From positions 1 through 64,000 of the forward strand of contig PKQS01000009.1 in NCBI GenBank assembly GCA_017577945.1: a stretch of DNA of 64,000 bases. Reading direction: 5' to 3'. Position 1 is the first letter of the stretch, and every line of letters starts with the position of its first letter. The position numbers and the translations under genes were made by a program. Shown here piece after piece: positions 14,039 to 35,554 of this stretch. The notes below the pieces were generated by a model, which searched no databases, had not been told where the DNA came from, and was given only the letters and a program-made list of their open reading frames with translations. Source of the stretch: Bacillota bacterium (GTDB lineage Bacteria; Bacillota; Limnochordia; Limnochordales; ZCTH02-B6).

Positions 14039-14992
14039 TCAGCGCCCGAGCAACCTCCGCATCACTTCGGCCCGCGCCTCTTCCAAGAGTTGTTGGATTT
14101 CGGCAACGGGCTCCAGCTGAAAGCCTTCCGAAGCCGGGATGAGCGAAGCTTCCATGACGGGGACGTCGCCGCTCAAGTCCACCAGCACCTTGCCGACATA
14201 ATGCGCGTGCTCATGCGCCTGGACGAACAACGTGCCGTGGTGTACTTCGCCCTCCGGCAGCAGGGTGTGGCTGTGACCGTCGATGAACAGATCGATGCCC
14301 GGCACGGCCGCCGCGATGTCCGTCGACGAATAGTTCCTGCCGTAGCCGACATGCCCGACGGCGATGACCATGTCCACACCCAGCTGGTTGCGGAGGAAAT
14401 CCACGTAGTAGGCGGCCGTCTCCGCCATGTCCCGGAACTCGATCCCCCGGATGTTGTCCGGGTGAGTAGTCGTGGATGTGTCAGGCGTGGCGAGACCGAA
14501 GATGCCGATTTTCTTTCCCGCTGCCTCGACGACGGCGTAGTCTCGGAACAGCCGCTCGCCGTCTTTGTACACGTTGGCACCGAGCAGGGTGAAGTCCATC
14601 ATCTCCTGCAGCTCGAGGAGTCGATCGTACCCGAAGTTGAAATCGTGGTTGCCCGGCACCATGAAATCGTAGCCCGCCAGATTCATCGCCTTCACGGTGC
14701 TTTCGCCGTGCAGGCGGTCGGAAATCGGCCGGCCGTGGAGCGTATCGCCCGCGTCGATGACCAGCACGTGCGGGTACATGGCGCGGTAGTGCCGCACAAG
14801 GGCGGCGATATACGGCATGCCGAGGATCTCGTTGTCCACGTTGGGCTCGATGCGGGCGTGCATGTCGTTGGTGTGGAGGATGACCAGGTCCACCCGCGGC
14901 ATGCCGAAGGTGGGAGCCGAGACAACGAGTGCAACAAGCAACGCTATGACCGCCGCTGTTTGGGTCATTAGCGCTGGGCTTCGTCGTGCCAT
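14039..14992 (-). CDS. Secreted metallophosphatase: N-terminal half of a split 5'-nucleotidase
   Basis: A secreted calcineurin-like phosphatase of 317 residues that matches only the N-terminal domain of UshA/YfkN-type 5'-nucleotidases. A signal peptide (AAVIALLVALVVSAPTFG) is followed by the metal motifs ILHTNDMHARIEP, IDAGDTLHG, VPGNHDFNFG and DGHSHTLLPEG, plus QAHEHAHYVG. The substrate-binding C-terminal domain, normally fused, is missing; it is encoded separately at 16719-17387. The protein ends soon after a short Glu-rich tail, so this is a clean domain boundary and not a random break. Start: ATG at 14992, with GAGG 7 bp upstream; a GTG one codon earlier is possible. Expected role: dephosphorylating nucleotides outside the cell. 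Confidence 0.88.
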   Translation of the reverse strand: MARRSPALMTQTAAVIALLVALVVSAPTFGMPRVDLVILHTNDMHARIEPNVDNEILGMPYIAALVRHYRAMYPHVLVIDAGDTLHGRPISDRLHGESTVKAMNLAGYDFMVPGNHDFNFGYDRLLELQEMMDFTLLGANVYKDGERLFRDYAVVEAAGKKIGIFGLATPDTSTTTHPDNIRGIEFRDMAETAAYYVDFLRNQLGVDMVIAVGHVGYGRNYSSTDIAAAVPGIDLFIDGHSHTLLPEGEVHHGTLFVQAHEHAHYVGKVLVDLSGDVPVMEASLIPASEGFQLEPVAEIQQLLEEARAEVMRRLLGR

Positions 14993-15040
14993 CACAGCGC
15001 CTCAAGCCTCCGTTCCTCGATCGGTACTCGGTACTTGGTC

Positions 15041-16600: not shown

Positions 16601-16616
16601 GTCCTTTCCTCCTTTG

Positions 16617-16646
16617 AGAAAAAGACCCGGCGGAAACCGCCGGGTC
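16617..16646 (-). terminator. Intrinsic terminator between split-nucleotidase C half and propeller gene
   Basis: On the minus strand GACCCGGCGG, TTT, CCGCCGGGTC (10-bp perfect arms) is followed by TTTTTCTC. It lies 72 bp after the C-half gene and directly before the ribosome site of the propeller gene, so the latter is reached only by read-through or an unseen promoter. Confidence 0.85.
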
Positions 16647-16718
16647 ACCTTCGCTCACGTTACGATTCAGCACGAGGGGAGACCAAGCGGGGCTCCCGTG
16701 CCGGCAAGAGGCCGGCTG

Positions 16719-17387
16719 TCACTTGACCTCGCCGATCTGGACGATGCGCCCTTCGACTTTGGGAGCGACGGGGCTGTTTTCCATCAGGTACTGGATGAGC
16801 ACTTCCTGCATGGAACCGAACTCCTGCAGGACCGGCTTGTTCAGCATCTCATAGCCGTCGCCGCCAGCCGTAAGGAAGCCGTTGGTTGCCACGACGAACT
16901 TGGCGTTGGGATCGATGGGCTCGCCCTGGTACCGCACTTCCACGATGCGGCTGCCCGGCGGCTGGGTGCCGTCGAATACGTAAGCGAGTCCGCTGACGTG
17001 CGGGAAACCGCCCCACAGCTCGGGCCACATGCTGACCCCGTGTTCGAGCGCGGCGATGATTTCCGCGCCGGTGAGCTCAATGGTCACCACCGTGTTCTCA
17101 AAGGGCAACAGCGTCAGCAATTCTTCCAGGGTGATGGGCCCGGGTTCGATAAACTCACGAATGCCGCCGCCGTTGGTGATGCCTACGTCGGCGCCGGTGA
17201 ACTCCCGCATCGCGTCGATAACGAGATTGCCCGCGGTGGTTTCCTTGGTGCGGATGTTCTCGCGCGCGGCGTCCAGGTACACCAGCGTTTCGCCGACGAC
17301 CATGTCCATCGCCAGGGCATGCCCGCCGAGCACGGACGCGGCGGCCAACAGAGACATGACAAACATAAGTTTCCTCAATGCGCGCAT
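16719..17387 (-). CDS. Secreted 5'-nucleotidase C-terminal domain protein (second half of split enzyme)
   Basis: A 222-residue exported protein equal to the 5_nucleotid_C domain only. It has its own signal peptide (LMFVMSLLAAASVLGGHALA), then GNLVIDAMREFTGADVGITN with the nucleoside-binding NGGGIRE, the FENTVVTIELTGAEIIAALE helix and VVATNGFLTAGGDGYEML, all hallmarks of the substrate-binding domain. It has no metal-binding motif, so it should not be catalytic alone. The partner domain is encoded at 14039-14992. The ATG at 17387 follows AGGAGTGGCAGC. The gene is headed by its own promoter and a palindrome. Confidence 0.9.
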   Translation of the reverse strand: MRALRKLMFVMSLLAAASVLGGHALAMDMVVGETLVYLDAARENIRTKETTAGNLVIDAMREFTGADVGITNGGGIREFIEPGPITLEELLTLLPFENTVVTIELTGAEIIAALEHGVSMWPELWGGFPHVSGLAYVFDGTQPPGSRIVEVRYQGEPIDPNAKFVVATNGFLTAGGDGYEMLNKPVLQEFGSMQEVLIQYLMENSPVAPKVEGRIVQIGEVK

Positions 17388-17584: not shown

Positions 17585-18343
17585 TCAGACGATGTGCAGG
17601 GTGATGCCGAGGTTTTGGATGTGCTCGATCCAGTCTTGGCTGATGCCCGAATCGGTGATGATGGCGTCGAAGTCGGTGAGGTCCGCGAAGTACGAGGGCT
17701 TGACTTTGCCGAACTTGGTGGAGTCGACCGTCAGGATTTTCGAAAGAGAACACTTCAGGGCCGCGAGCTTGGTCGAGGTCTCGTACTGGTTGACGCACGT
17801 GACGCCCAGCTCTTTGCTGATGCCCGCCGCGGACACGAAATACTTGTTGGCGCACGTCCTGGAGATGAGCTGGATCCCTTCCGGGCTCTCGAACAGGCCG
17901 GTATCCCGGTGGTAATACCCGCCGGCGAAAATGATGTCGACCATAGGCTTCTTGTAGATCTCCGCCAGCACGTTGGCGGTGAAACAGACCACCGTCACGG
18001 GCAGGTCGTCCGGCAGTAGCTTGGCGATGTACTCCGTGGTGGTGCCGATGTCGATGACAATCACGTCGTGGGGTTCGATGAGCGAGACTGCCTTCTGGCC
18101 GATGCGGTATTTCTCCGGGGCATGCTTGTCCTTTTCCGCCGCCAGTTCGTAGATGCCGTCGCTGTTGTAAATGGCCGCACCGTGAATGACGTTCACAATG
18201 TTGTATTCTTTCAGCACACTGAGGTCCCGGCGGATCGTCATCTCGGACACGTCGAACGCGGCGGCTAGTTCCTTGATGGATGCAGCGTGCTTTCTCTTAA
18301 GATAAGACACGATTTCGTTGAGCCTGTCCCGCCTTCGACTCAC
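17585..18343 (-). CDS. DeoR/GlpR-family transcriptional regulator
   Basis: A 252-residue repressor: an N-terminal winged helix (ASIKELAAAFDVSEMTIRRD, the DeoR signature) followed by the ISOCOT-fold sensor domain with DIGTTTEYIAKLLP and ADLTDFDAIITDSGIS, which in relatives binds a phosphorylated sugar. It starts at a GTG after AAGGGGGTCGAGAAGTT. It is transcribed divergently from deoC-udp-ECF, so deoxyribose-5-phosphate or ribose phosphate is the likely effector, as for Bacillus or E. coli DeoR, though this is inference. Matching GGTGTAAA sequences lie just downstream of both divergent promoters. Confidence 0.9.
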   Translation of the reverse strand: MSRRRDRLNEIVSYLKRKHAASIKELAAAFDVSEMTIRRDLSVLKEYNIVNVIHGAAIYNSDGIYELAAEKDKHAPEKYRIGQKAVSLIEPHDVIVIDIGTTTEYIAKLLPDDLPVTVVCFTANVLAEIYKKPMVDIIFAGGYYHRDTGLFESPEGIQLISRTCANKYFVSAAGISKELGVTCVNQYETSTKLAALKCSLSKILTVDSTKFGKVKPSYFADLTDFDAIITDSGISQDWIEHIQNLGITLHIV

Positions 18344-18557: not shown

Positions 18558-18606
18558 TTGACGTCCTTACATATTGATGGTACAATCAAAACAACGACGG
18601 TGTAAA
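18558..18606 (+). promoter_or_regulatory. Promoter of deoC-udp operon with GGTGTAAA site
   Basis: TTGACG (18558-18563), a 17-base spacer and TACAAT (18581-18586) form a near-consensus sigma-A promoter. GGTGTAAA follows at 18599-18606, close to the start of the transcript, and mirrors the site below the deoR promoter about 210 bp away. I infer a DeoR operator pair controlling both directions. Confidence 0.7.
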
Positions 18607-18680
18607 GTGACTCAATGCGAACGAGATGTAGTCGTTTTCGTAACAACTTGCATCGTCATTCGCAAGGGGTTGCAGAACTG

Positions 18681-19358
18681 GTGGACAATCCGGTGGATTA
18701 CAAAGAGATTCTAAGCAAAGTCGACCACACGCTCCTCGACGTCACGGCCCGCTGGGAAGACGTCAAAGCGGTGGCGGACGAAGCCCTGGCATTTCAGACC
18801 GCTTCCGTGTGCATTCCTCCCAGTTTCGTCAAGCCAGTCAAGGACTACGTAGGAAATCGCATGGCCGTCTGTACCGTCGTCGGATTCCCCAACGGCTATA
18901 GCACGACCGCCGTCAAGGTTTTCGAGACGGAAGACGCCATCGCCAACGGCGCCGATGAGATCGACATGGTCATCAACATCGGCCTGGTCAAAGCGGGACT
19001 GTCCGACCAGGTGCTCGCGGAAATCCGCGCCGTGAAAGCGGCCTGCGGCAGCCGCTTGCTCAAGGTCATCATCGAAACGTGCCTGCTGACGGACGACGAG
19101 AAGGTGCGCATGTGCGAAGTCGTCACGGAGGCGGGGGCCGACTTCATCAAGACGTCCACCGGTTTTTCGCACGGCGGAGCCACGTTCCGGGACATCGAGC
19201 TCATTCGGCGGCACGTGGGACCCGGTGTCAAGATCAAGGCTTCGGGCGGCATCGCGAGCCTGGAAGACGCCGCCAAGTTCATCGCTCTCGGGGCGTCCCG
19301 TTTGGGTTCGAGCCGGATTGTGAAACTGGTCAAGCAACAGCAGCAGCAACAGCGGTAG
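18681..19358 (+). CDS. deoC: Deoxyribose-phosphate aldolase
   Basis: Class I aldolase splitting 2-deoxyribose-5-phosphate into acetaldehyde and glyceraldehyde-3-phosphate, the last step of deoxynucleoside breakdown. The GTG at 18681 ([20 protein letters not shown]) follows AAGGGG and gives 225 residues, the family norm; the ATG at 18615 would add an unlikely tail. The Schiff-base lysine is K157 in DFIKTSTGF, the second lysine is K186 in KIKASGG, and the catalytic Asp lies in [10 protein letters not shown]. The C-terminus ends in six glutamines from a CAG/CAA run. It is the first gene of an operon with udp and an ECF importer. Confidence 0.95.
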
Positions 19359-19375: not shown

Positions 19376-20110
19376 ATGGCTCTGGAGGTAGACGGGCTGC
19401 AGTATCACATCAGGCTGAAGAAGGGCGACGTCGGCAGGTACGTCCTTTTGCCCGGCGACCCGTTCAGGACGGATCTCATCGCCACTTACTTTGAACACCC
19501 CCAGCTCATGGCCCACAACCGTGAGCACAAAACCTGGACCGGCTACATCGACGGCGTCAAGGTGTCCGTGACGTCCACCGGCATGGGCTGCCCATCTACC
19601 GCCATCGCCGTGGAGGAGCTCATCAAGTGCGGCGCGGACACCTTTATTCGTGTCGGGACGGCGGGCCCGGTGGCGGACATCGCCCGGGACCCGTCGGTCG
19701 ACGGGGTCATCTGCACGGCGGCTGTGCGCGATGAGGGAACGACTCTCCACTACATGCCTGTGGAGTACCCCGCGGTGGCCGATCGGCACGTGGTTGCCGC
19801 CTTGGTGGAAGCGGCCAAGAAGAACGGGCTCAACTACCTGGAAGGCATCTGCCAGTCGAAAGACTCCTTCTACGGCGAAGTCGACCCCGACTCTTCGCCC
19901 GTGGCCAAGCGGCTGAAGGAACGGTGGGAAGCCTGGAAGCGAGGCAACGTCCTGGCGTCGGAGATGGAGGCGGCGGCCTTGTTCGTCATCTCGTCGATCC
20001 GAGGCTGCAGGGCGGGGGCCATCGTGTCCTTCAAGGACGTGCGCGATTCCATCCGGGTCGCCTGCGACGCCATCCGGATTCTGGCGCGGAAGGACGGCCT
20101 GATCCAATAA
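19376..20110 (+). CDS. udp: Uridine phosphorylase
   Basis: Nucleoside phosphorylase (PNP/UDP family, 244 residues) that converts uridine and phosphate to uracil and ribose-1-phosphate. The N-terminus LQYHIRLKKGDVGRYVLLPGDPFR, the phosphate-site STGMGCPSTAIAVEELI, FIRVGTAGPV and the ribose-binding SEMEAAALF are visible. The ATG at 19376 lies after AGGGAGGACTAGGGG, 17 bp beyond deoC. Together with deoC it makes a pyrimidine (deoxy)nucleoside breakdown unit. Thymidine use by the enzyme is possible but cannot be judged from sequence. Confidence 0.92.
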   Translation: MALEVDGLQYHIRLKKGDVGRYVLLPGDPFRTDLIATYFEHPQLMAHNREHKTWTGYIDGVKVSVTSTGMGCPSTAIAVEELIKCGADTFIRVGTAGPVADIARDPSVDGVICTAAVRDEGTTLHYMPVEYPAVADRHVVAALVEAAKKNGLNYLEGICQSKDSFYGEVDPDSSPVAKRLKERWEAWKRGNVLASEMEAAALFVISSIRGCRAGAIVSFKDVRDSIRVACDAIRILARKDGLIQ

Positions 20111-20122
20111 CAGGTGACGAAC

Positions 20123-20974
20123 ATGAGCCGACCAATCATCGAGGTGCGGGAGTTCAGCTACATCTACCCCAACTCGACGGAGTTCGCGCTGAAAAACGTG
20201 TCCTTCACCATCGAAAAGGGCGACTTCGTCGGGATCATCGGTTCGAACAAGGCAGGCAAGTCCACGCTCTGCAAAGCCTTGGTGGGCGTCATTCCGAACT
20301 TCATCGGCGGCAAGTGGAGCGGGGATGTGCTCGTCGACGGCGAGCCGATCACGGGCGTGGAAAACCACAGCGCGGCCGACAAGATCGGAATCGTCTTTCA
20401 AGACGCCGAAAGCCAGTTCACGCAGGAAACCGTCGAGGACGAAGTCGCTTTCGCCATGTGCAACCACGGCTTCAGCAAAGAGCTCATGCTGCAGCGCGTG
20501 GAGGAAGCGACCAAGGCCTGCGGCCTGTTTGACCTGCTTGACCGCTCACCGTTCAGGCTGTCGGGCGGCCAGCAGCAGCGGCTGGCCATCGCCTGCGTGC
20601 TCGCTTTGCGCCCCGAGGTCATCATCCTCGACGAATCCACGTCCCAGCTGGACCCCATCGGGCGCAGCGAAGTGTTCTCGGTCGTCAAGGAGCTGCACAG
20701 AAGAGGCACCACCATCATCATGGTCGAGCACAACATCGAAAAGATCGCGGAGTACGCAGATAAAGTCATGGTGCTCTCCCACGGGGAGCTGGTCGAGTAC
20801 GGCCCCGCGAAAGAGGTTTTCAACAAGCGGGAGAAGTTGGCCGGCCACAAGGTGCGGGTTCCTCAGGTGACCGAGGCGGCGTTGGCCCTCCGGCACAAGC
20901 TGGACTTCACGGCCGCTCCGATCACGCTTCCGGAAGCCAAGCAGTTGTGCACACCGCTGAGAAGGCCGAGGTAG
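20123..20974 (+). CDS. ecfA: ECF transporter energy-coupling ATPase (cassette 1)
   Basis: CbiO/EcfA-type ATPase of 283 residues that powers a vitamin- or nucleoside-type importer with the following three genes. The Walker A reads GSNKAGKST, where the usual GxGK glycine is Ala; Q-loop FQDAESQFTQETVEDEVAF; full signature LSGGQQQRLAIACVLAL; Walker B VIILDESTSQLDP with Ser after the catalytic Glu where Pro is usual; switch His in MVEHNIEKIAEYADK. The ATG at 20123 follows AGGTGACGAAC. Its gene follows udp by 12 bp, tying transport to uridine breakdown. Confidence 0.92.
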   Translation: MSRPIIEVREFSYIYPNSTEFALKNVSFTIEKGDFVGIIGSNKAGKSTLCKALVGVIPNFIGGKWSGDVLVDGEPITGVENHSAADKIGIVFQDAESQFTQETVEDEVAFAMCNHGFSKELMLQRVEEATKACGLFDLLDRSPFRLSGGQQQRLAIACVLALRPEVIILDESTSQLDPIGRSEVFSVVKELHRRGTTIIMVEHNIEKIAEYADKVMVLSHGELVEYGPAKEVFNKREKLAGHKVRVPQVTEAALALRHKLDFTAAPITLPEAKQLCTPLRRPR

Positions 20975-20980: not shown

Positions 20981-21789
20981 ATGGGCAAAGCGGTCATCGA
21001 AACCATCGACCTCGTTCACACCTACAAGACGGGCGTCACGGCCCTCAAAGGCGTGAACCTGAAGATATACGAGAACCAAGTGGTGAGCATTGTCGGCCAG
21101 AACGGGAGCGGCAAGACCACCCTGGTCAGGCACTTCAACGGGCTGCTGAAGCCCACTTCGGGCAAGGTTCTCGTGGACGGGGAAGACACCGCAGGAAAGC
21201 GCATGCCCGAACTGGCGCGCAAGGTGGGCTACGTCTTCCAAAACCCGAACCACCAGATTTTCTGCACGACCGTTCGCGAAGAGCTCCTGGTGGCGCCGCG
21301 GAACTTTAACTTCTCGGAAGACGAAAACGGGCCCTCGACGAAGTGGTCGAGCTGATGGGGCTCGCGTCCGAGCTGGACAAGCACCCGCTCACGCTGGACT
21401 ACACCTCGAAGAAGATTGTCACCATTGCCTCCGTCTTGATCTACAAACCTAATGTGCTCGTCTTGGACGAACCTACCAACGGCCTCGATCAGTCCGGTCG
21501 CGAGATGCTCACCAAGATCATCGACATGATGAAAGCGGCGGGCCACACGGTCGTCATGATCTCGCACGACATGGACTACGTCGCGGAGGTCTCGGAGCGT
21601 GTCGTCGTGATGGCCAACGGCCAGGTGATCAAGGACGGCGCTCCGGCGGAGGTCTTCCTGGACCGCGAGGCCTTGGTGGAGGCACAAATCGAGCCACCCC
21701 AGATCACGGAGTTGGACTTGTACCTGTCCAACGGAGCGGGAGGTGGGTTGGCGCTGACGGTGGCTGATTTCGTCAGGAAGTACCAGTAG
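20981..21789 (+). pseudogene. ecfA: ECF transporter second ATPase (cassette 1), frame broken once
   Basis: The partner EcfA' ATPase, readable in two frames: 20981-21355 (Walker A GQNGSGKTT, Q-loop FQNPNHQIFCTTVREELL) and about 21343-21789 (Walker B VLVLDEPTNGLDQ, switch His ISHDMDYVAEVS). Restoring one A to the AAAA run near 21330 joins them as SEDEKRALDEVVELMGLASE with normal family length of about 269 residues. The signature region reads LDYTSKKIVTIAS with no LSGGQ, the same degeneracy as in the second cassette's partner. It is either a true frameshift or a sequence error; I lean to error. Confidence 0.8.
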
Positions 21790-21842: not shown

Positions 21843-22449
21843 ATGCCGGAACTGAAGGAAATGGAAGCTGCCAAAGGCAGACTGCGCACTACTTACTTGG
21901 CTGTTCTTATCCCGCTGGGTACCGCCATCAACCTCGTCGGCGGGCAGGTTGGCGAGCCAGCTCAAGCTGCCGTTGTTCCTGGACTCCATCGGCACGGCCA
22001 TCGTCGCCGCCATCATGGGGCCGTGGGCCGGCGCGGCTTCCGGCGTGCTGTACAACGTCATCGCCTCGCTGATTAGCGGCAACCTGCTCGGCTCGCTGTT
22101 CGGGATCTGCAACATGGCGACGGCCCTTATCGTCGGCTACATGGTGCGAAAGGGCAAGTTCGAGACGTGGGTGCACGTGGCCCTGGCGGGCGTGTTCGTC
22201 GCGCTGGCCAATGCCATGCTCGGCGCGCCCATCGCGGTAGTGGTGTACGGCGGCGTGCAGGGCAGCGGCGTCGATTTGCTGGTAGCCGGGTTGCTGTCGC
22301 TGGGGCAGGACATCTTGTCCGCGGCGTTCTTGGCCCGGGTGCCCATCAACTTGGTGGATAAGGGCATTGCGGTGATCATCGCGTGGATCATTCTCAAGCG
22401 CCTGCCTGAAAACATGAAAGGCTTGTCGGGAGCGCCGGCGCGCAGCTGA
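21843..22449 (+). pseudogene. ECF transporter S-component (cassette 1), frame broken once
   Basis: Membrane substrate-binding subunit of the ECF importer, in two frames (21843 to about 21935, then to 22449). Removing one G in CAGGTTGG near 21948 gives INLVGGQLASQLKLPLFLDS, which aligns gap-free with INLIGGAIAIALKLPIYLDS of the second cassette. The joined protein would have about 201 residues and five to six membrane helices, typical of S-components. Neighbouring udp and deoC suggest a pyrimidine nucleoside or base as substrate; this is inference. The extra base is not in a long homopolymer. Confidence 0.75.
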
Positions 22450-22514: not shown

Positions 22515-23297
22515 ATGATCCAGCCACGGCCAAAACCCACGTTCCTGCGCAGGCTACATCCCATCACCAAACTGTGGATGAGTCTGGGGCTGACCCTCGC
22601 GATCATTCTGTTCGCGAACACCTGGTTTTCGCTCCTGCTCATGCTGGTGGGCGTCCTCTGGATATACAAGGAAAAGTATATCCTGGAGTTCAAGATCGTG
22701 GCGTTCGCCATCGTCACCATGGGCATCAGCATGTTCCTCATCAACGGCACGCTGAACCCGGTGAACGACTACACGAAGGATCCCGTGTTCATCCTTCCTT
22801 GGCTGGGCTGGAAGTTTTACGAAGAAGGGCTGATGTACGCGCTGGCCGTGTTCCGCCGGATCGCCCCGCTGATGGCCGTGCTGTTCCTGCTGTTTCGGAC
22901 GATCAACATGACGGATCTCGGCGTCGGGCTGACCCAGGCCGGTTTGTCGTACCGCGCGGCCTTCATCTTCGTGACGACCTTCCAGCTGCTGCCCGTCCTG
23001 AGCAAGGACATGCAGCAAGTGATGGACGCGCAGCGATCCCGCGGCCTCGACACGGAAGGAAATCTGTGGCAGAGGTTCAAGGCGTTCGTCCCGATCATGG
23101 TGCCGGTGATCGCCAACTCCATCGCGAAAATCCAAGAGCAGGCCATCGCGCTGGAGACGAAGGGGTTCAACCTGCCGGGCAAGAAAACCGTCTACCGCGA
23201 CCTGCCCAAGACGGCGGCGGATCGGCTGTTGACGGTCGGTAGCATCTTGCTGGCCTTGTGCGCCATCGTCTACCGCATTGTCGCGGCTTTCGCCTGA
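22515..23297 (+). CDS. ecfT: ECF transporter transmembrane component EcfT (cassette 1)
   Basis: Energy-coupling T-subunit of 260 residues with about five membrane helices and the two cytoplasmic coupling motifs: AQRSRGLDTEG near residue 171 (the Ala-Arg-Gly signature) and ALETKGFN near 213. It links the two ATPases to the S-component. It ends the deoC-udp-ecfA-ecfA'-S-ecfT operon and is followed by a clear terminator. The presence of a private A-A'-T set makes this a dedicated (group I) ECF system. Confidence 0.92.
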   Translation: MIQPRPKPTFLRRLHPITKLWMSLGLTLAIILFANTWFSLLLMLVGVLWIYKEKYILEFKIVAFAIVTMGISMFLINGTLNPVNDYTKDPVFILPWLGWKFYEEGLMYALAVFRRIAPLMAVLFLLFRTINMTDLGVGLTQAGLSYRAAFIFVTTFQLLPVLSKDMQQVMDAQRSRGLDTEGNLWQRFKAFVPIMVPVIANSIAKIQEQAIALETKGFNLPGKKTVYRDLPKTAADRLLTVGSILLALCAIVYRIVAAFA

Positions 23298-24775: not shown

Positions 24776-24842
24776 TTGACAATAAACTTATGCGGTTTTA
24801 CGATCGGGATAGAGGTCTGATCTCTTTTCGGCTGATCAGACC
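24776..24842 (+). promoter_or_regulatory. Promoter and palindromic operator of gntR-nucleoside hydrolase-ECF operon
   Basis: TTGACA (24776-24781), a 17-base spacer and TACGAT (24799-24804), followed at once by a perfect inverted repeat GGTCTGATC (24814-24822) and GATCAGACC (24834-24842) with an 11-base gap. Its position near +1 to +35 suits a repressor site for the GntR-type regulator encoded 100 bp downstream. Confidence 0.7.
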
Positions 24843-26849: not shown

Positions 26850-27437
26850 ATGTCCGTGATACGTCGCATTACGCAAAACTTCACGATGATGTCGATCTTG
26901 CTCATCCCGGTCGCCATCGGCATCAACCTGATCGGCGGGGCTATCGCCATCGCCCTGAAGCTGCCCATCTACCTGGACTCCATCGGCACGGTGCTGACCG
27001 CCGTCTTGTCCGGTCCCTGGGTGGCCGCGGTGGCGGGCTTCCTGACGAGCGTGGTGGCCACGATTACCATCGACCCCATCTCGCTGCCCTTCGGCCTCGT
27101 GCAGATCGCTATCGCTTTGGTGGCCGGAGCGCTGGCGAACCGCGGCTGGTTCGACAGCGTAGGCAAGACCATCGTGTCCGGGCTGGTCATCGCCCTCACG
27201 GCCGCGGTGGCCGCATCGCCCATCGTCGCCTACTTGTTCGGCGGCGTTACCGGTGCGGGTTCGGCGTTCATCGTGGGCTACCTGCTGGCGACGGGGCAGC
27301 AGCTGCTGACTTCCGTCTTCACGGCGCAAATTCTGAGTGACGGCGCCGACAAGGTGCTGTCCGCGCTGGTGGCCTACGTGATCGTGCGCAACATGTCGGA
27401 GCGGTACAAGGTGCAGTTCCGCGGCGCGGCGAGGTAG
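26850..27437 (+). CDS. ECF transporter S-component (cassette 2), putative nucleoside binder
   Basis: Membrane substrate-binding subunit of 195 residues with five or six hydrophobic segments. I chose the ATG at 26850 (GGGGAGGCGAGCTTC before it); the open frame extends upstream without support. Conserved with cassette 1: INLIGGAIAIALKLPIYLDS at about residue 30 followed by IGT, and a second-half FGGVTGAGSAFIVGYLLATG. These shared stretches suggest related ligands for both systems. Substrate inferred as a nucleoside or base from the hydrolase next door. No predicted specificity for vitamins such as ThiT or RibU motifs was seen. Confidence 0.85.
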   Translation: MSVIRRITQNFTMMSILLIPVAIGINLIGGAIAIALKLPIYLDSIGTVLTAVLSGPWVAAVAGFLTSVVATITIDPISLPFGLVQIAIALVAGALANRGWFDSVGKTIVSGLVIALTAAVAASPIVAYLFGGVTGAGSAFIVGYLLATGQQLLTSVFTAQILSDGADKVLSALVAYVIVRNMSERYKVQFRGAAR

Positions 27438-27530: not shown

Positions 27531-28310
27531 ATGACGATGAACACGTTTTACGTGAACACCGGCTCTTGGTTCGAATCGTTGCACCCCATCTCCAAACTGT
27601 ACTTCGTCGCGGCGATGGCCGTCGTGCCGTTCCTTACGGCCAACCTGGGCGTCCTCGGCGCGTATTTGGCCGTCGTCGTCCTGCTGGCGTACAGCGCGCA
27701 GGTCGGCGGGCGCTTCGTCGGCGTGCTGCTGCGGGCCGTCGCGCCGCTGCTCCTGCTGCTCTTCGCCATGCAGAGCCTGCTCTATCCCGGCGGGCAGGAC
27801 ATTCTCTTCCAGTGGGGCGGTCTGGCGGTGAAGCGGGAAGGGGTGCTCTTCGCCGCCGTCGTCGGCATGCGGCTGCTGGTCGTCGTGGGCGCCATCCTGC
27901 TCATGCTCATGTCCACGCACCCGAAGCACCTGGTGGTGGCGCTGGAACAGCGGGGCATGCCGGCGAAAGCGGGCTACATTATCTTGTCCACGATGCAGAT
28001 CATCCCGCAGATGCAGACCCTGTCGAGAAAGATCCTGGACGCGCAGAAATCCAGGGGCGTCGAGGTCGAAGGCGGCCTCTGGACGAGGATTAGGGCGTAC
28101 ATTCCGGTCGTCGGGCCGCTCATTCTGGCGTCCATCGCCCAGCTGGAGAACAAGGCCTTGGCGCTGGAGTCCCGCGCGTTCAACGCGGCGGTAAAGAAGA
28201 CTTCCATGATCGACTTCACGATGACGGCAGCGGACCGCGCGCTGCGAGCCGGTTCGATCCTGATCCTTGTCGGCGCGGTCGCCGGAAGAGTGGTGCCGCT
28301 ATGGCTCTGA
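27531..28310 (+). CDS. ecfT: ECF transporter transmembrane component EcfT (cassette 2)
   Basis: T-subunit of 259 residues, about five membrane helices, with coupling motifs AQKSRGVEVEG near residue 172 and ALESRAFNAA near 212; the second has Ala where Gly is common. ATG at 27531, with another at 27537. The last 10 bp overlap ecfA. It shares layout with the cassette 1 T-subunit but is clearly divergent in sequence, so the cassettes are paralogues and not a recent copy. Confidence 0.92.
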   Translation: MTMNTFYVNTGSWFESLHPISKLYFVAAMAVVPFLTANLGVLGAYLAVVVLLAYSAQVGGRFVGVLLRAVAPLLLLLFAMQSLLYPGGQDILFQWGGLAVKREGVLFAAVVGMRLLVVVGAILLMLMSTHPKHLVVALEQRGMPAKAGYIILSTMQIIPQMQTLSRKILDAQKSRGVEVEGGLWTRIRAYIPVVGPLILASIAQLENKALALESRAFNAAVKKTSMIDFTMTAADRALRAGSILILVGAVAGRVVPLWL

Positions 28311-29158
28311 TCCAGGTCGAAAACTTGTCGTTCCAATACCTGCTGGGCAACGGAAAAGCGCTCGACGGCGTTTCGCTGACCGTCGAAGAAGGCGAGCTGT
28401 GCGCCGTCATCGGGCCCAACGGCAGCGGCAAGTCCAGCTTGTGTTACGCCATCCGGGGGTTTATCCCGCACTTTTTCCGCGGCCAGCTGACCGGCGACGT
28501 CATCATCGACGGCAAGCGCAACTCCGAGCGCACGCTGGGCGAGATCGGGCTCGACGTCGGGTTCGTCTTCCAGAATCCGTTCACGCAGCTCTCCGGCGTC
28601 GCGCTGACCGTCGAAGAGGAAATCGGCTTCGGCCTGGAAAACCTGGGGGTGCCCAGGGAGGAGATCCGGCGGCGGGTCGACGAGATGCTGGAGCTGCTGG
28701 ACATCGCCGCCCTGCGGGACCGCAGCCCCTACGAGCTTTCGGGTGGGCAGCAGCAAAAGGTGGCCATTGCGTCGATCCTGGTGATGCAGCCGCACATTCT
28801 CATCCTCGACGAACCCACGTCCCAGCTGGATCCCATCGGGACGGAGCAAGTCTTTGAGGTCATCGACCTCATGAAGCGGCGCGGCATCACCGTCATCTTG
28901 GTCGAGCACAAGCTGGAGCTGATTTCGCGCTTTGCCGACAAGGTGGTCGTGCTGCGCGACGGGCGCGTGCTGCTGAGCGGCGGGCTGCGGGAAGTGTTTG
29001 CTCATCCCGACTTTGAACGCTCCGGGCTGAAGCCGCCCGTTTACGTCGAGGTCAGCGAGGCGGCCAGGCGCCGCTTCGGCGTCGACGTTCCGGTCGCGCT
29101 GACCCATGAAGAATGCGTCGCCGTGCTGCGATCGGTGGACCGGCGAGGTGGCTGCTGA
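28301..29158 (+). CDS. ecfA: ECF transporter energy-coupling ATPase (cassette 2)
   Basis: EcfA-type ATPase of 285 residues. All motifs are canonical: Walker A GPNGSGKSS, Q-loop FQNPFTQLSGVALTVEEEI, signature LSGGQQQKVAIASILVM, Walker B ILILDEPTSQLDP and switch His VEHKLELISRF. It overlaps ecfT by 10 bp and touches the next gene in a TGATG junction. Compared with its cassette 1 counterpart, the Walker A is intact here. Confidence 0.93.
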   Translation: MALIQVENLSFQYLLGNGKALDGVSLTVEEGELCAVIGPNGSGKSSLCYAIRGFIPHFFRGQLTGDVIIDGKRNSERTLGEIGLDVGFVFQNPFTQLSGVALTVEEEIGFGLENLGVPREEIRRRVDEMLELLDIAALRDRSPYELSGGQQQKVAIASILVMQPHILILDEPTSQLDPIGTEQVFEVIDLMKRRGITVILVEHKLELISRFADKVVVLRDGRVLLSGGLREVFAHPDFERSGLKPPVYVEVSEAARRRFGVDVPVALTHEECVAVLRSVDRRGGC

Positions 29159-29961
29159 TGGCCATTGTGGTGTCGAACCTGGTGTACCGGTACCCGAACG
29201 GGTACGAAGCGCTGAAAGGCGTCAACTTGCGCATTGAGGCCGGCGAGCAGGTGGCCATCATCGGGCAGAACGGCGCGGGAAAGACGTCGCTGGTCAAGCA
29301 CTTCAACGGGCTGCTGAAACCGTCGGAAGGCCAGGTGACGGTCAACGGCGTCGACACGCGGGAGAAGACCACCGCCCAGCTGGCTCGCCTCGTCGGGTAC
29401 GTGTTCCAAAATCCCGACGACCAGCTGTTCAATTCGACCATTCGCGAAGAGCTGCGCTTCGGGCCGCGGCAGCTGGGCATGCCGGCCGAGGAGATCGACA
29501 AGGCGGTGGAAAGGGTCGCGCAGCTCACCGGTCTGCAAGACGTGCTGGACAAGAACCCTTACGACGTCTCCGAGTCGGCCCGGAAAATGATCGCCATCGG
29601 GTCGGTGCTGACCATGGACCCGGACATTATCGTCATGGACGAGCCGACGGCCGGGCAGAGCTACGACCAAATCCTGGTTCTGGAGTCGATCCTGGCGTAC
29701 GCGCGCCGGCGCGGCAAGACCGTCATCACCATCACCCACGACATGGAGTTCGTGGCGCGCAATTTCGACCGCGTCATCGTGATGCACGAAGGGCAAGTCC
29801 TGATGGACGGCACGCCGCGCGAAGTGTTCGCTCGGCCGGACGTGTTGGCCGCGAGCCGCCTGCGGCCGCCGTTCCTGAGCCGCCTCAGCGCCGAGCTGGG
29901 CTTGCCGCTCTGTTTCACCGTTCAGGAGCTTCTCGACGCGCTGGCTGCGAGCAAGGCGTGA
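29158..29961 (+). CDS. ecfA: ECF transporter second ATPase with degenerate signature (cassette 2)
   Basis: Partner ATPase EcfA', 267 residues from the ATG at 29158, which shares one base with the upstream stop. Walker A GQNGAGKTS, Q-loop FQNPDDQLFNSTIREEL, Walker B IIVMDEPTAGQSYDQ and switch His ITHDMEFVARNF are present, but the signature reads VSESARKMIAIGS with no LSGGQ. The equivalent protein in cassette 1 is also degenerate here, so the asymmetry is conserved. It predicts one normal and one weakened ATP site per dimer. It ends the operon; a GC-rich hairpin region follows. Confidence 0.92.
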   Translation: MAIVVSNLVYRYPNGYEALKGVNLRIEAGEQVAIIGQNGAGKTSLVKHFNGLLKPSEGQVTVNGVDTREKTTAQLARLVGYVFQNPDDQLFNSTIREELRFGPRQLGMPAEEIDKAVERVAQLTGLQDVLDKNPYDVSESARKMIAIGSVLTMDPDIIVMDEPTAGQSYDQILVLESILAYARRRGKTVITITHDMEFVARNFDRVIVMHEGQVLMDGTPREVFARPDVLAASRLRPPFLSRLSAELGLPLCFTVQELLDALAASKA

Positions 29962-31231: not shown

Positions 31232-33256
31232 ATGAGTGGGCGGCGGTATCGTCTTGCCGTATTCGTTCTCATCCTTGCGTTGGCAGCCGCGTACCCGGCC
31301 GTGGCCAGCGCGGCTGAGCTCGTCATCATGGCCACCACGGACATCCACGCGAACATCTATGCGTGGGACTATTACGCCAATCAACCGAGCGACAACGTCG
31401 GTCTGGCCAAGATTTACACCTTGGTCAAAGAGATCCGGGCGAGCCATCCCAATACGCTGTTGTTCGACAACGGCGACCTGATCCAGGGTACTCCGCTGGC
31501 GTCGTACCTGGTCGCCAACGGGTTGCCCGCGCCGGGCGAAGTGCACCCCATCATCGACGTCATGAACCGGATGGGCTACGACGCGGCGACGCTGGGCAAC
31601 CACGAGTTCAACTTCGGGCTTGACTACGCGCTGAATACGATCGCCGGCGCCCAATTCCCGTACGTGCTGGCCAACGTTTATCATCCGGGCACGCAGGATC
31701 CGTACTTCACGCCGTACGTCATCCTGGAGCGCACCATCGACGGCCAGCCGATCCGGATTGGCGTCATCGGCTTCGTGCCGCCGCAGATCATGGTGTGGGA
31801 CCGCACCAACCTGACGGGCAAGGTGGAGGCGGGCTCCATCATCGAGGCGGCGCAGCGGTTCGTGCCTGAGATGAAGGCCAAGGGCGCGGACATCGTCATC
31901 GCCCTGGCGCACACGGGCGCGACGCCGGGCAACCGGTCGGAGAACGCGGCGTACACGCTGGCCGAAGAGGTGCCCGGCATCGACGTCATCATCGTCGGCC
32001 ACTCGCACCTGGAGATCCCGGGCCCCGGCTTGGCGGACGTGCCCGACGGCAAGGTCAACGGCGTGCAGCTGGTGCAGCCGGGCTTCTGGGGCCAGTACCT
32101 GGGCGTCGTGACGCTGACGCTGGAGCGCGAAGGCGGCACCTGGAAGGTCGTGGACAGCAAGGCGGAGCTGCGCTCCACGGCCGGTGTCGAGCCGTCGCCG
32201 GAAGTCATGGAGTGGGCCAAGGACGTGCACGAGGCCACCGTGGCTTACGTGAACACGCCCATTGGAATCACGCTGACGCCCATCTCCAGCCGGGCCAGCT
32301 TGCTGACGGACACCGCGGTCATCCAGCTCATCAACGACGTGCAGCTGTATTACGCGCGGCAGTGGCTGCAGGGCACCGAGTATGAGGACCTGCCGTTGCT
32401 GTCGGCGGCGGCGCCGTACAAGAGCGGCCGCGGCGGCGAGCTGGACTTCACCGAGATCGCGGCGGGCGGCATCACCATCGGCGACGTGGCGTCCATCTAC
32501 ATCTACGACAACACCGTCAAGATCCTGAAGATCACGGGCGCCGAGCTGAAGGCGTGGCTGGAGCACGCCGCGCAGAAGTTCCATCAGGTCGTGACGCCGG
32601 GCCGCGGCGAAGAGCCGCTCTACACGGACTTCCGCGGCTACAACTTCGACCAGATCGACGGCGTCGAGTACCAGATCGACATCACGAAGCCGCTGGGCGA
32701 GCGGATCGTCAACCTGACGTACCAAGGCGAGCCCGTCCGGCCGGACCAGGAGTTCCTGATCGTCACCAATAACTACCGGGCCGACGGCGGCGGCAACTTC
32801 CCGGCCACGGGCGCCAACCAGCGCCTGGTGCTGGATCCGGGCGTCGCGAACCGCGAGCTGATCGTCCAGTACATCATCGAGCACGGCGTCATCGAGCCGA
32901 ATCCCGACCACAACTGGTCGCTGGTGCCGAACTTCCTGAATCACCCGCAGGCGCAGTTCGTGTATGAGCTGATCAAGCGCGGCGCCTATGTGGGTGACCT
33001 GGAAGGCCGGCTGTTGCTGGATGCGCCGCTGACCCAGAAGGTCTGGGCCGATATGGTATACCGGGCGCTGGGCCTGCGGCTGGCGGTGGATGAGCCGGCG
33101 GCCGTGGTGACGGCGGCCCAGGCGGTGCGCGACCTGGCGGCCTACCTGCCCGGCAGCGTGGTGGCGGCCGCGGGCGACGATGTGCTGACGCAGGCCGACG
33201 CGGCGCAGCTGCTGGTGGGCGTGCTGGCCGTGGCGGACGTGGTCAGCGCTCGGTGA
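31232..33256 (+). CDS. cpdB: Secreted 2',3'-cyclic-nucleotide phosphodiesterase / 3'-nucleotidase (copy 1)
   Basis: Exported two-domain nucleotidase of 674 residues. After a signal peptide (LAVFVLILALAAAYPAVASA) comes the metallophosphatase domain: D37/H39 in ATTDIHANIY, D82 in DNGDLIQG, N123-H124 in LGNHEFNFG and H257/H259 in VGHSH. The 5_nucleotid_C domain runs from about 340 to 560, with NNYRADGGGNFPA. A tail of about 100 residues resembles SLH repeats (YELIKRGAYVGDLEGRLLLD, then ADMVYRALGL), likely for envelope anchoring. ATG at 31232, after AGGAGGGGAG. It releases nucleosides and phosphate outside the cell for the ECF importers (inference). Confidence 0.93.
   Translation: MSGRRYRLAVFVLILALAAAYPAVASAAELVIMATTDIHANIYAWDYYANQPSDNVGLAKIYTLVKEIRASHPNTLLFDNGDLIQGTPLASYLVANGLPAPGEVHPIIDVMNRMGYDAATLGNHEFNFGLDYALNTIAGAQFPYVLANVYHPGTQDPYFTPYVILERTIDGQPIRIGVIGFVPPQIMVWDRTNLTGKVEAGSIIEAAQRFVPEMKAKGADIVIALAHTGATPGNRSENAAYTLAEEVPGIDVIIVGHSHLEIPGPGLADVPDGKVNGVQLVQPGFWGQYLGVVTLTLEREGGTWKVVDSKAELRSTAGVEPSPEVMEWAKDVHEATVAYVNTPIGITLTPISSRASLLTDTAVIQLINDVQLYYARQWLQGTEYEDLPLLSAAAPYKSGRGGELDFTEIAAGGITIGDVASIYIYDNTVKILKITGAELKAWLEHAAQKFHQVVTPGRGEEPLYTDFRGYNFDQIDGVEYQIDITKPLGERIVNLTYQGEPVRPDQEFLIVTNNYRADGGGNFPATGANQRLVLDPGVANRELIVQYIIEHGVIEPNPDHNWSLVPNFLNHPQAQFVYELIKRGAYVGDLEGRLLLDAPLTQKVWADMVYRALGLRLAVDEPAAVVTAAQAVRDLAAYLPGSVVAAAGDDVLTQADAAQLLVGVLAVADVVSAR
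31390..32009 (+). repeat. 620-bp tract identical to 33691-34310
   Basis: By eye every base of this block matches the corresponding block of the second cpdB gene (offset 2301 bp), including silent positions, whereas sequence on both sides differs at many sites. It covers most of the metallophosphatase domain. The pattern indicates recent gene conversion or recombination between the tandem copies. Confidence 0.85.
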
Positions 33257-33439: not shown

Positions 33440-33532
33440 TTCGCAAGCAGCGAATCGGTACAGGAGCGGGTGCCGGGATGACCTTAGGCGTCCCGGGCCG
33501 CAACCAACGCGCAGGAGGGGAGTTAGTCGTCG

Positions 33533-35554
33533 ATGAGCGGACGGTGGTATCGTCACGTCGCCTTCGTGCTGGCGCTGGCCTTGGCCGTCGCTGTGCCGGC
33601 CGTGGCTCGCGCGGCCGAGCTGGTCATCATGGCCACCACGGACATCCACGCGAACATCTACCCGTGGGACTACTACGCCAATAGACCGAACGACAACGTC
33701 GGTCTGGCCAAGATTTACACCTTGGTCAAAGAGATCCGGGCGAGCCATCCCAATACGCTGTTGTTCGACAACGGCGACCTGATCCAGGGTACTCCGCTGG
33801 CGTCGTACCTGGTCGCCAACGGGTTGCCCGCGCCGGGCGAAGTGCACCCCATCATCGACGTCATGAACCGGATGGGCTACGACGCGGCGACGCTGGGCAA
33901 CCACGAGTTCAACTTCGGGCTTGACTACGCGCTGAATACGATCGCCGGCGCCCAATTCCCGTACGTGCTGGCCAACGTTTATCATCCGGGCACGCAGGAT
34001 CCGTACTTCACGCCGTACGTCATCCTGGAGCGCACCATCGACGGCCAGCCGATCCGGATTGGCGTCATCGGCTTCGTGCCGCCGCAGATCATGGTGTGGG
34101 ACCGCACCAACCTGACGGGCAAGGTGGAGGCGGGCTCCATCATCGAGGCGGCGCAGCGGTTCGTGCCTGAGATGAAGGCCAAGGGCGCGGACATCGTCAT
34201 CGCCCTGGCGCACACGGGCGCGACGCCGGGCAACCGGTCGGAGAACGCGGCGTACACGCTGGCCGAAGAGGTGCCCGGCATCGACGTCATCATCGTCGGC
34301 CACTCGCACCGGGTCATCCCCGGCCCTGGCTTGGAAGTTGCGCCCGACGGCAAGGTCAACGGCGTGCAGCTGGTGCAGCCGGGCTTCTGGGGCCAGTACC
34401 TGGGCGTCGTGACGCTGACGCTGGAGCGGGAAGGCGGCGCCTGGAAGGTCGTGGACAGCAAGGCCGAGGTGCTGCCGACGCGTGACGTCGCCCCGGCGGA
34501 CGAGGTGCTGGCGTGGGCCAAGGACGTGCACGAGGCCACCGTGGCTTACGTGAACACGCCCATTGGAATCACGCTGACGCCCATCTCCAGCCGGGCCAGC
34601 CAGCTGACGGACACGGCGGTCATTCAGCTGATCAACGACGTGCAGAAGTACTACGTCGAAGAGATGCTGAAGGGCACCGAGTATGAAGGCTTGCCGGTGC
34701 TGTCGGCCGCCGCGCCGTTCAAGACGGGCTACGGCGGAGAAACGGACTTCACCGAGATTCCCGTGGGCGGCATCACCATCGGCGACGTGGCGTCCATCTA
34801 CATCTACGACAACACGCTGAAGGCGCTCAAGGTGACGGGCGCCGAGATCAAGGCGTGGCTGGAGCGGGCCGCGCAGAAGTTCCAGCAGGTGACGCCGGGT
34901 CGCGGCGAAGAGCCGCTGTTCACCACGATGCCTGGCTACAACTTCGACCAGATCGACGGCATCGAGTACCAGATCGACATTACGAAGCCCGTTGGCGAGC
35001 GCATCGTCAACCTGACCTTCAACGGCAAGCCCATCGAGCCTGACCAGGAGTTCATCCTGGCCACCAACAACTACCGGGCCGACGGCGGCGGCAACTTCCC
35101 GGCCACGGGCGAGCACGCTCGGGTCGTCCTGGATCCGGGCATCGCGAGCCGGGAGCTGATCGTCAAGTACATTACCGAGAAGGGCGTCATCGCCCCGGTG
35201 CCGGACTACAACTGGTCGCTGGTGCCCAACTTCCTGGATCACCCGCAGGCGCACTTCGTGTACGAGCTGCTCAAGCGGGGCGCGTACGTGGGTGACCTGG
35301 AAGGCCGGCTCCTGCTCGACGCGCCGCTGACCCAGAAGGTCTGGGCTGACATGGTGTACCGGGCGCTCGGTTTGCACCTGACCGTGCTGGATCCGCAGGC
35401 CACGGTGACGGAGGCCCAGGCGGTGCGTGACCTGGCCTCGTACTTGCCGGGCACCGTGGTGGCCGCCGCGGGGGACCGCGTGCTGACGCAGGCCGACGCC
35501 GCGCAGCTGTTGGTGGGCGTGCTGGCGGTCAAGGACCTGGTGCCGGTCTGGTAA
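33533..35554 (+). CDS. cpdB: Secreted 2',3'-cyclic-nucleotide phosphodiesterase / 3'-nucleotidase (copy 2)
   Basis: Tandem paralogue of the preceding nucleotidase, 673 residues, with the same signal peptide, metal motifs, 5_nucleotid_C domain and SLH-like tail (HFVYELLKRGAYVGDLEGRL). Differences cluster in the signal peptide, in the linker after GHSH (RVIPGPGLEVAPDG) and in the C-terminal half, so substrate range may differ while the catalytic domain is kept the same by conversion. The ATG at 33533 follows AGGAGGGGAG. It has its own promoter and terminator. Confidence 0.93.
   Translation: MSGRWYRHVAFVLALALAVAVPAVARAAELVIMATTDIHANIYPWDYYANRPNDNVGLAKIYTLVKEIRASHPNTLLFDNGDLIQGTPLASYLVANGLPAPGEVHPIIDVMNRMGYDAATLGNHEFNFGLDYALNTIAGAQFPYVLANVYHPGTQDPYFTPYVILERTIDGQPIRIGVIGFVPPQIMVWDRTNLTGKVEAGSIIEAAQRFVPEMKAKGADIVIALAHTGATPGNRSENAAYTLAEEVPGIDVIIVGHSHRVIPGPGLEVAPDGKVNGVQLVQPGFWGQYLGVVTLTLEREGGAWKVVDSKAEVLPTRDVAPADEVLAWAKDVHEATVAYVNTPIGITLTPISSRASQLTDTAVIQLINDVQKYYVEEMLKGTEYEGLPVLSAAAPFKTGYGGETDFTEIPVGGITIGDVASIYIYDNTLKALKVTGAEIKAWLERAAQKFQQVTPGRGEEPLFTTMPGYNFDQIDGIEYQIDITKPVGERIVNLTFNGKPIEPDQEFILATNNYRADGGGNFPATGEHARVVLDPGIASRELIVKYITEKGVIAPVPDYNWSLVPNFLDHPQAHFVYELLKRGAYVGDLEGRLLLDAPLTQKVWADMVYRALGLHLTVLDPQATVTEAQAVRDLASYLPGTVVAAAGDRVLTQADAAQLLVGVLAVKDLVPVW
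33691..34310 (+). repeat. 620-bp tract identical to 31390-32009
   Basis: Second member of the identical block shared by the two cpdB genes. Shorter identical runs also occur further downstream, for example around the VNTPIGITLTPISSRAS codons in both copies. Confidence 0.85.

What the first reader, a model, noticed from the sequence alone, without database searches (positions are those of the whole stretch)
14039..35554. A nucleotide-to-sugar scavenging island with two dedicated ECF importers
Four secreted nucleotidase proteins (a split 5'-nucleotidase and two CpdB types), deoC, udp, a nucleoside hydrolase, a DeoR and a GntR/UTRA regulator, and two full ECF cassettes (A, A', S, T) lie within 22 kb. 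Each cassette follows a nucleoside-cleaving enzyme in the same operon. The two S-components share a motif (INL[VI]GG...LKLP[LI][FY]LDS). This suggests a family of ECF S-components for nucleosides: pyrimidine type for the udp-deoC cassette and possibly another nucleoside for the hydrolase cassette. Operon membership is seen; substrate is inferred.
Basis: partly seen in the sequence, partly recalled or inferred. Interest (0 to 1): 0.78.

Follow-up and report, generated by a model that had tools for sequence, protein, structure and literature searches.

The report
ECF importers probably specific for nucleosides
A bacterium carries two small ATP-driven importers of a type known for vitamins, each in an operon with an enzyme that cuts nucleosides, and relatives of these importers in other bacteria keep the same partners, so they probably bring in nucleosides as food.

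Summary
The observation largely holds. The window has four secreted nucleotidase-type proteins, deoC, udp, a nucleoside hydrolase (NH), DeoR and GntR/UTRA regulators, and two ECF cassettes, each downstream of a nucleoside-cleaving enzyme. Correction: cassette 1 is not intact as assembled; EcfA' and the S-component (S1) are each split by a frame slip. A third related cassette lies elsewhere in the genome.

The inference was tested with relatives of the second S-component (S2). The scan confirmed 425; the best 80 were kept. NH or a PNP/UDP-type phosphorylase (PNP) lies nearby in 65 of 80, and NH directly upstream in 58 of 80. In a control, 0 of 30 other PF12822 S-component loci had either gene within 1.5 kb (10 of 33 for the family at that flank). 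The S2 model has the S-component fold. Both S-components fall below the cut-off of an NCBIfam family with no assigned substrate (CD3073). The 12 CD3073-type loci examined carry a TudS-like desulfidase gene next to or near S.

Best reading: dedicated ECF importers for nucleosides, feeding intracellular cleavage. No transport or binding was measured. Queuosine importers of the same Pfam family (QrtT) are the main rival; no tgt was found beside these loci. My searches of open-licence papers showed no report of this use.

The parts
14039..14995 (-). secreted 5'-nucleotidase, catalytic (Metallophos) half
   Evidence: PF00149, 53.2 bits; signal-peptide-like N-terminus read by eye
16719..17387 (-). 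secreted 5'-nucleotidase, C-terminal half, separate gene with its own signal-like N-terminus; lies upstream of the catalytic half on the minus strand
   Evidence: PF02872, 156.1 bits; gene order from coordinates
17585..18343 (-). DeoR-type repressor, divergent to operon 1
   Evidence: PF00455, PF08220; best NCBIfam model DeoR 182 bits against cut-off 244
18558..18586 (+). sigma-70-like promoter ahead of operon 1
   Evidence: 10 of 12 consensus matches with TG; consensus match only
18615..19358 (+). DeoC deoxyribose-phosphate aldolase (start codon uncertain)
   Evidence: TIGR00126, 239.9 bits, over cut-off
19376..20110 (+). Udp-type nucleoside phosphorylase
   Evidence: TIGR01718, 254.5 bits, cut-off 280.3
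20114..20974 (+). EcfA of cassette 1
   Evidence: PF00005; TIGR04520 best NCBIfam model, under cut-off
20981..21789 (+). EcfA' of cassette 1, split by a frame slip near 21331
   Evidence: two ORFs 20981-21355 and 21343-21789, both PF00005 hits (the second 21.7 bits, under cut-off 25)
21843..22449 (+). S-component S1, split by a frame slip near 21950
   Evidence: PF12822 36.3 bits; NF045596 143 bits for 21949-22449
22515..23297 (+). EcfT of cassette 1
   Evidence: PF02361, 80.1 bits
23324..23359 (+). terminator-like hairpin closing operon 1
   Evidence: -27.4 kcal/mol, z -4.8 against shuffles; not among the 19 sites of the pattern scan
24776..24804 (+). sigma-70-like promoter ahead of GntR and operon 2
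   Evidence: 10 of 12 consensus matches; consensus match only
24941..25783 (+). GntR/UTRA regulator
   Evidence: PF00392, PF07702
25746..26723 (+). nucleoside hydrolase, no signal peptide seen by eye
   Evidence: PF01156, 328 bits; RihA 232.8 and RihC 229.7 bits, both under cut-off
26850..27437 (+). S-component S2
   Evidence: PF12822 26.3 bits (under cut-off 30.7), NF045596 130.7 bits; model pLDDT 87, S-component fold
27531..28310 (+). EcfT of cassette 2
   Evidence: PF02361, 83.2 bits
28301..29158 (+). EcfA of cassette 2
   Evidence: PF00005; TIGR04520 best model, under cut-off
29158..29961 (+). EcfA' of cassette 2 (start inferred)
   Evidence: PF00005; TIGR04521 best model, under cut-off
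31232..33256 (+). secreted CpdB 2',3'-cyclic phosphodiesterase/3'-nucleotidase (start inferred)
   Evidence: NF006938 593 bits over cut-off 486
33533..35554 (+). secreted CpdB, second copy
   Evidence: NF006938 599.5 bits over cut-off 486

Best explanation
Two dedicated (own A, A', T and S) ECF importers whose S-components bind nucleosides. Secreted nucleotidases and CpdB proteins strip phosphate from outside nucleotides. The S-components capture the nucleosides, which the ATP-driven A-A'-T module carries in. Inside, operon 1 phosphorolyses pyrimidine (deoxy)nucleosides with the Udp-type enzyme and sends deoxyribose-phosphate to DeoC; operon 2 hydrolyses ribonucleosides with the nucleoside hydrolase. 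DeoR and GntR/UTRA control them. Shown: genes, order, S-component fold of S2, conserved context. Inferred: substrate, direction, the pyrimidine/ribonucleoside split, regulation.
For: Operon membership with gaps of about 3-126 nt and a terminator-like hairpin after EcfT1. Of 80 named relatives kept from 425 confirmed, NH or PNP lies in the fetched DNA in 65, NH in 61, PNP in 6, RbsK-type kinase in 35; NH or PNP within 1.5 kb in 62 of 80; NH directly upstream and co-directional in 58 of 80; T-A-A' directly after S in 51 of the 79 with a selected S ORF. By phylum: Chloroflexota 58/65, Bacillota 5/9, Parvarchaeota 1/1, unassigned 1/1. Control, best-scoring PF12822 S-components of 30 genomes, +-1.5 kb: 0 of 30 NH or PNP (2 of 30 a RbsK-type kinase), against 10 of 33 CD3073-relatives at the same flank (Fisher p 0.0007). 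Dropping this genome's own 3 loci and counting the L006 remnant as negative leaves 8 of 30 (p 0.002). After dereplication at 75% identity, 25 of 46 S rows have NH or PNP nearby, two of them the window's own. The two kinases from NH loci scanned with NCBIfam are ribokinase over cut-off (L066, L147). The NH starts MKVLLDTDPGID, no signal peptide by eye, so the nucleoside itself must enter. The 22 highest-ranked solved structures by VIA-align Z (9.8-14.1) are S-components, some identified from memory. PF02361 finds three EcfT in the genome, each in a cassette with a CD3073-like S, and PF07662 finds no CNT-type nucleoside transporter.
Against: No binding or transport data. 15 of 80 named relatives lack NH and PNP in the fetched DNA, including all 3 Pseudomonadota (PCC-type gene upstream instead) and the one Bipolaricaulota. 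The genome also has two Bmp/PnrA-type hits, so ECF need not be its only nucleoside importer. YhhQ-type queuosine-precursor transporter genes lie in 11 of 80 loci. The third cassette of this genome has no adjacent nucleoside gene among those recognised. Cassette 1 is frame-broken as assembled. The 80 are mostly Anaerolineae and are the closest relatives only; 4 of them look like the same contigs as loci in the phylum set (equal contig lengths).
Confidence: 0.77

Rival explanations
1. The S-components are queuosine/queuine-precursor importers (QrtT-like), the nucleoside hydrolase being a QueK-type queuosine hydrolase.
For: QrtT is also PF12822, one C. difficile QrtT carries preQ1, q and Q, and QueK is a nucleoside hydrolase (PMC11130926, passages). 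YhhQ/QPTR-type genes occur in 11 of 80 named loci.
Against: No TGT homologue in 80 named loci, the 35 wide loci or the window (phmmer with the own genome's TGT, E up to 1e-5); that genome's tgt is on another contig. No preQ1 riboswitch at E up to 1 in window 12000-38000, nor at gathering threshold in 8 related loci. Udp, DeoC, ribokinase, LacI and DeoR are catabolic partners, not Q-salvage genes. A QrtT or QueK sequence was not on hand, so there was no direct comparison; QueL was not searched for.
Confidence: 0.1
2. The cassettes import free nucleobases or a pentose (products of outside cleavage), and the adjacent enzymes work on nucleosides from another importer or from RNA turnover.
For: CD3073-type S-components lie near TudS-like proteins, whose characterised relatives act on thiouracil bases as well as 4-thio-UMP. 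Bmp-type hits exist in the genome.
Against: NH and Udp show no signal peptide by eye, so cleavage is taken to be intracellular, and NH directly precedes S in 58 of 80 loci.
Confidence: 0.09
3. Vitamin or metal ECF importers whose nucleoside neighbours are accidental.
For: Characterised ECF substrates are described as micronutrients (abstracts listed; PMC7329351 passage).
Against: 0 of 30 control S-component loci against 10 of 33 at the same flank, and 65 of 80 for the closest relatives. For 10 related S-components, NCBIfam folate and ThiW S models stay below their cut-offs (best: FolT family 38.6 against 60, L070).
Confidence: 0.03

Closest known systems
NCBIfam NF045596, CD3073 family putative ECF transporter S component
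   Same: Best model for S1 (143 bits), S2 (130.7) and the 10 related S-components scanned
   Different: S1 and S2 are under its cut-off (180). The 12 top-scoring other loci of the phylum scan (11 over cut-off) have a TudS-like desulfidase gene, in 8 next to S and in 4 behind the A-T module; only one of the 12 (L054) also has an NH in the mapped neighbourhood. No substrate is named for the family
QrtT/QueT ECF importers of queuosine precursors
   Same: PF12822 S-component (QrtT), ECF module, a nucleoside-hydrolase partner (QueK) in the pathway (PMC11130926 passages)
   Different: No tgt found beside the loci examined and no preQ1 riboswitch found where searched; catabolic partners (DeoC, ribokinase) instead
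FolT and RibU/ThiT vitamin S-components
   Same: Fold: VIA-align Z 9.8-14.1 for the 22 top rows; FolT chains are the only clear sequence hits in PDB (best 1e-8)
   Different: 11-19% identity in those rows; no vitamin gene was recognised beside S1 or S2, but no systematic scan for such genes was made in relatives
BmpA/PnrA-NupABC nucleoside ABC importers
   Same: ATP-driven nucleoside uptake (recalled)
   Different: Substrate-binding lipoprotein plus separate permeases rather than an ECF S-component (recalled); this genome has Bmp hits elsewhere

Membership tests
ECF transporter (dedicated-module type) | S-component with the six-helix S fold | tested here: met
   S2 model pLDDT 87.4, pTM 0.84; the top 22 rows by Z are S-components, Foldseek E-values alone weak. 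S1 not modelled
ECF transporter (dedicated-module type) | A, A' and T encoded with S | tested here: met
   Cassette 2 intact; cassette 1 has all four genes but A' and S1 carry frame slips
ECF transporter (dedicated-module type) | ATP-driven import of the S ligand | not testable with these tools
   needs uptake assay
NF045596 CD3073 family | score over the curated cut-off of 180 bits | tested here: not met
   S1 143 (part after the slip), S2 130.7; relatives, not members
Pfam PF12822 ECF_trnsprt | score over gathering cut-off 30.7 | tested here: inconclusive
   S1 36.3 over; S2 26.3 under
QrtT queuosine-precursor importer | clustering with Q salvage genes (tgt) | tested here: not met
   no TGT hit in 80 named loci, 35 wide loci or window; YhhQ-type genes in 11 of 80
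QrtT queuosine-precursor importer | sequence similarity to a characterised QrtT | not tested
   no QrtT sequence was fetched
Nucleoside importer | nucleoside binding and uptake | not testable with these tools
   context only
TudS desulfidase (neighbours of CD3073-type S) | three cluster-ligating Cys and catalytic Glu | tested here: met
   Cys at alignment columns 24, 61, 122 and Glu at 63 invariant in 12 of 12; pattern as Cys10, Cys43, Cys104, Glu45 of TudS (PMC10611767 passages)
TudS desulfidase (neighbours of CD3073-type S) | PF04463 gathering score 34.7 | tested here: not met
   6 of 12 scanned: 29.8, 19.2, 20.5 bits and three with no hit; distant relatives at best

The most novel reading that the evidence does not exclude
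The CD3073-related S-components form a nucleoside/pyrimidine arm of the ECF superfamily with several branches: NH-linked importers that take ribonucleosides as carbon (frequent in Anaerolineae), PNP/DeoC-linked importers for (deoxy)nucleosides, and CD3073-type importers for thiopyrimidines from tRNA decay, feeding a TudS-like desulfidase. ECF transport would then serve bulk nutrient scavenging and not only vitamins and metals.
Probability: 0.5. Interest if true: 0.78.

Novelty: new variant of a known kind. Interest (0 to 1): 0.63.

Why it matters
ECF importers are described as micronutrient (vitamin and metal) systems. A conserved branch tied to nucleoside cleavage and ribose or deoxyribose catabolism would extend them to nucleosides as food, give a testable substrate to an NCBIfam family whose name gives none (CD3073), and suggest a nucleoside importer for many uncultured Anaerolineae. 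It also suggests a transporter for thiouracil/thiouridine desulfidases; the main text of the TudS paper I searched does not contain the word transporter (PMC10611767).

Tried and rejected
Insertion splitting the 5'-nucleotidase: rejected, because on the minus strand the C-domain gene lies upstream of the catalytic-domain gene, the reverse of an interrupted gene, and each has its own signal-like start.

Riboswitch control of the cassettes: Rfam on window 12000-38000 at E up to 1 gave three weak hits, all under their gathering scores; 8 related loci at gathering threshold gave only rRNA.

Viral relatives: one viral-contig scan with S2; 7 stretches matched a pattern, none confirmed.

Pocket residues: model coordinates were not among the files in the Python box, so no pocket analysis was made. 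Foldseek itself gave no E under 0.001 (best 0.015, TmRibU); the fold claim rests on Z and coverage.

Literature: ten searches, library of open-licence PMC papers only. None of the listings showed an ECF importer for canonical nucleosides; exact phrases such as 'ECF nucleoside' gave 0 papers and CD3073 gave 0. Passages only were seen in PMC11130926, PMC11109136, PMC10611767, PMC5301498, PMC6593275 and PMC7329351; none names such an importer. The other listed papers were seen as titles and starts of abstracts. Subscription papers and preprints are not covered. The 2009 ECF survey of Rodionov and colleagues and the 2019 QueK/QueL paper are recalled, not read.

Control caveats: the 30 PF12822 control loci are the best-scoring hit of each of 30 genomes (of 61 searched), hence biased to canonical S-components; three have a flank cut by a contig end, as have three of the 33 family loci. 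From I left out of the 33 the weak hits L008 and L043-L045 and all hits for which no locus was given.

S1 tree placement (with L055 and L152, SH-aLRT 84, quick tree, end branch 1.55) is weak; the tree rests on its 166-residue part. L140 was left out of the upstream-gene count because its S ORF was not selected (1 of 80), and 6 more have S at the contig edge. S-like ORFs over 400 residues (phylum set) and 300 or more (named set) were left out of the tree.
Full report
What was checked. The window is part of contig C9 of a 1.96-Mb, 95%-complete genome in 19 contigs. Its 3.8-Mb single-contig relative G005 looks like Limnochorda by size (recalled, not tested). Operon 1 runs deoC-udp-ecfA-ecfA'-S1-ecfT with short gaps, from a promoter-like site at 18558 to a strong terminator-like hairpin after ecfT, with DeoR divergent. 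Operon 2 is gntR-NH-S2-ecfT-ecfA-ecfA'; gntR and NH overlap slightly. The nucleotidases flank both.

Correction to the observation. Cassette 1 is not intact in this assembly: ecfA' and S1 each change reading frame internally. Both halves remain open and carry conserved residues. Without reads I cannot say whether these are errors or lesions.

Family. S1 and S2 both match NF045596, the CD3073 family of putative ECF S-components, well below its cut-off. The genome holds a third relative on C7 and three EcfT hits, one in each cassette. S2 was modelled from 33 sequences (pLDDT 87, pTM 0.84). The 22 highest-ranked solved structures are S-components (Z 9.8-14.1; some named from memory), followed by Lnt at Z 8.8 and below; Foldseek's own E-values were weak.

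Context test. A scan of named genomes matched 468 stretches, of which 425 encode relatives; the best 80 were kept. In these, NH or PNP is present in 65, NH in 61, PNP in 6, ribokinase-type kinase in 35. NH is the gene directly upstream on the same strand in 58 of 80; six loci have S at the contig edge, in one the S ORF was not selected, and in six the upstream gene belongs to a cluster with the PCC domain (two members scanned). S is followed directly by T-A-A' in 51 of 79. Thirty loci have two adjacent NH genes, both of 250 residues or more in 27. The sample is dominated by Chloroflexota (58 of 65 with NH or PNP), with Bacillota 5 of 9, Pseudomonadota 0 of 3, Bipolaricaulota 0 of 1, Parvarchaeota 1 of 1 and unassigned 1 of 1. 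In a phylum sample (299 genomes) plus near relatives, 33 loci with flanks up to 1.5 kb had NH or PNP in 10 and a TudS-like gene in 8 (18 with any). Three of the 33 are this genome's own, and one PNP hit (L006, Limnochorda-like) is a remnant in the S upstream region. Four contigs seem to occur in both sets (L059 and L076, L060 and L079, L061 and L082, L062 and L077), judged by equal contig length. The control, 30 best PF12822 loci, had 0 of 30 NH or PNP and 2 of 30 a RbsK-type kinase (Fisher p 0.0007; with own loci dropped and the remnant counted as negative, 8 of 30 and p 0.002). At 75% dereplication 25 of 46 S rows have NH or PNP within the counted neighbourhood (two of them the window's own), 8 more have TudS-like alone, 4 PCC alone and 9 none.

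Downstream pathway. The two kinases from NH loci scanned with NCBIfam are ribokinases over the curated cut-off (L066, L147), so ribose released by NH can enter the pentose-phosphate pool. Of seven Udp-type genes scanned from related loci, all score best with the uridine-phosphorylase model, one of them over its cut-off (L064). Neither NH nor Udp of the window shows a signal-like start by eye, which argues that the intact nucleoside is what crosses the membrane.

CD3073-type loci. All 12 loci L046-L057 carry a DUF523/TudS-like gene: next to S in eight (L046-L053) and behind the A-T module in four (L054-L057). It is a distant relative by Pfam score (at most 29.8 against 34.7 in the six scanned, three without a hit), but cysteines at columns 24, 61 and 122 and glutamate at 63 are invariant in 12 of 12, in the pattern of the cluster ligands Cys10, Cys43, Cys104 and catalytic Glu45 reported for TudS (PMC10611767, passages only). 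This hints at thiopyrimidine import. S1 groups weakly with the L055/L152 branch (SH-aLRT 84); L152 itself has no TudS-like gene in its locus.

Queuosine rival. QrtT is PF12822 and QueK a nucleoside hydrolase (PMC11130926, passages). No TGT homologue was found in 80 named loci, 35 wide loci or the window; YhhQ-type genes were found in 11 of 80. I rate this rival at 0.1. A direct sequence comparison was not possible.

Novelty. In the ten literature searches listed under Tried and rejected, and in the passages seen, I met no ECF importer for canonical nucleosides. Queuosine import by QrtT means that ECF transport of one modified nucleoside is already known, so this is a new variant, not a new kind.

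Verdict. What remains inferred is the ligand.

Noticed in passing
L071:5110-8718; L073:5791-7977; L074:6920-8626; L075:7331-9520: CD3073-like S-component domains at the N-terminus of long proteins; the C-terminal parts look HD-GYP-like by eye (not scanned). Possible sensing receptors.
   Followed up: no
L046-L057 (12 loci): TudS-like desulfidase gene beside or near CD3073-type S-components, three Cys and one Glu invariant; suggests thiopyrimidine import.
   Followed up: partly
L015:5940-9323 (G000:C7): Third CD3073-like cassette of the same genome, with A and A' fused in one ORF, next to a DUF6351 (tannase-like) gene and about 3.6 kb from a chemotaxis-receptor gene; no nucleoside gene recognised beside it.
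   Followed up: partly
L145:7348-7959; L151:7481-7957: PCC-domain (PF03479) gene directly upstream of the S-component in Buttiauxella (scanned) and Morganella (by cluster), where NH and PNP are absent.
   Followed up: partly
window 15041-16648 -: Secreted-looking 535-aa protein without Pfam or NCBIfam hits between the two halves of the split 5'-nucleotidase.
   Followed up: no
window 23402-24694 +: MFS transporter gene between the two operons; could itself carry nucleosides or bases.
   Followed up: no
window 30167-31270 -: Peptidase_C39_2-like gene on the minus strand between cassette 2 and the CpdB genes.
   Followed up: no
window 1425-6347 + and 11144-12085 +: Branched-chain-type ABC importer genes (permeases, ATPases, binding protein) and an ADP-ribosylglycohydrolase left of the island.
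   Followed up: no
30 of 80 named loci: Two adjacent nucleoside hydrolase genes upstream of one S-component (both 250 residues or more in 27 of 30), suggesting two nucleoside classes per importer.
   Followed up: partly
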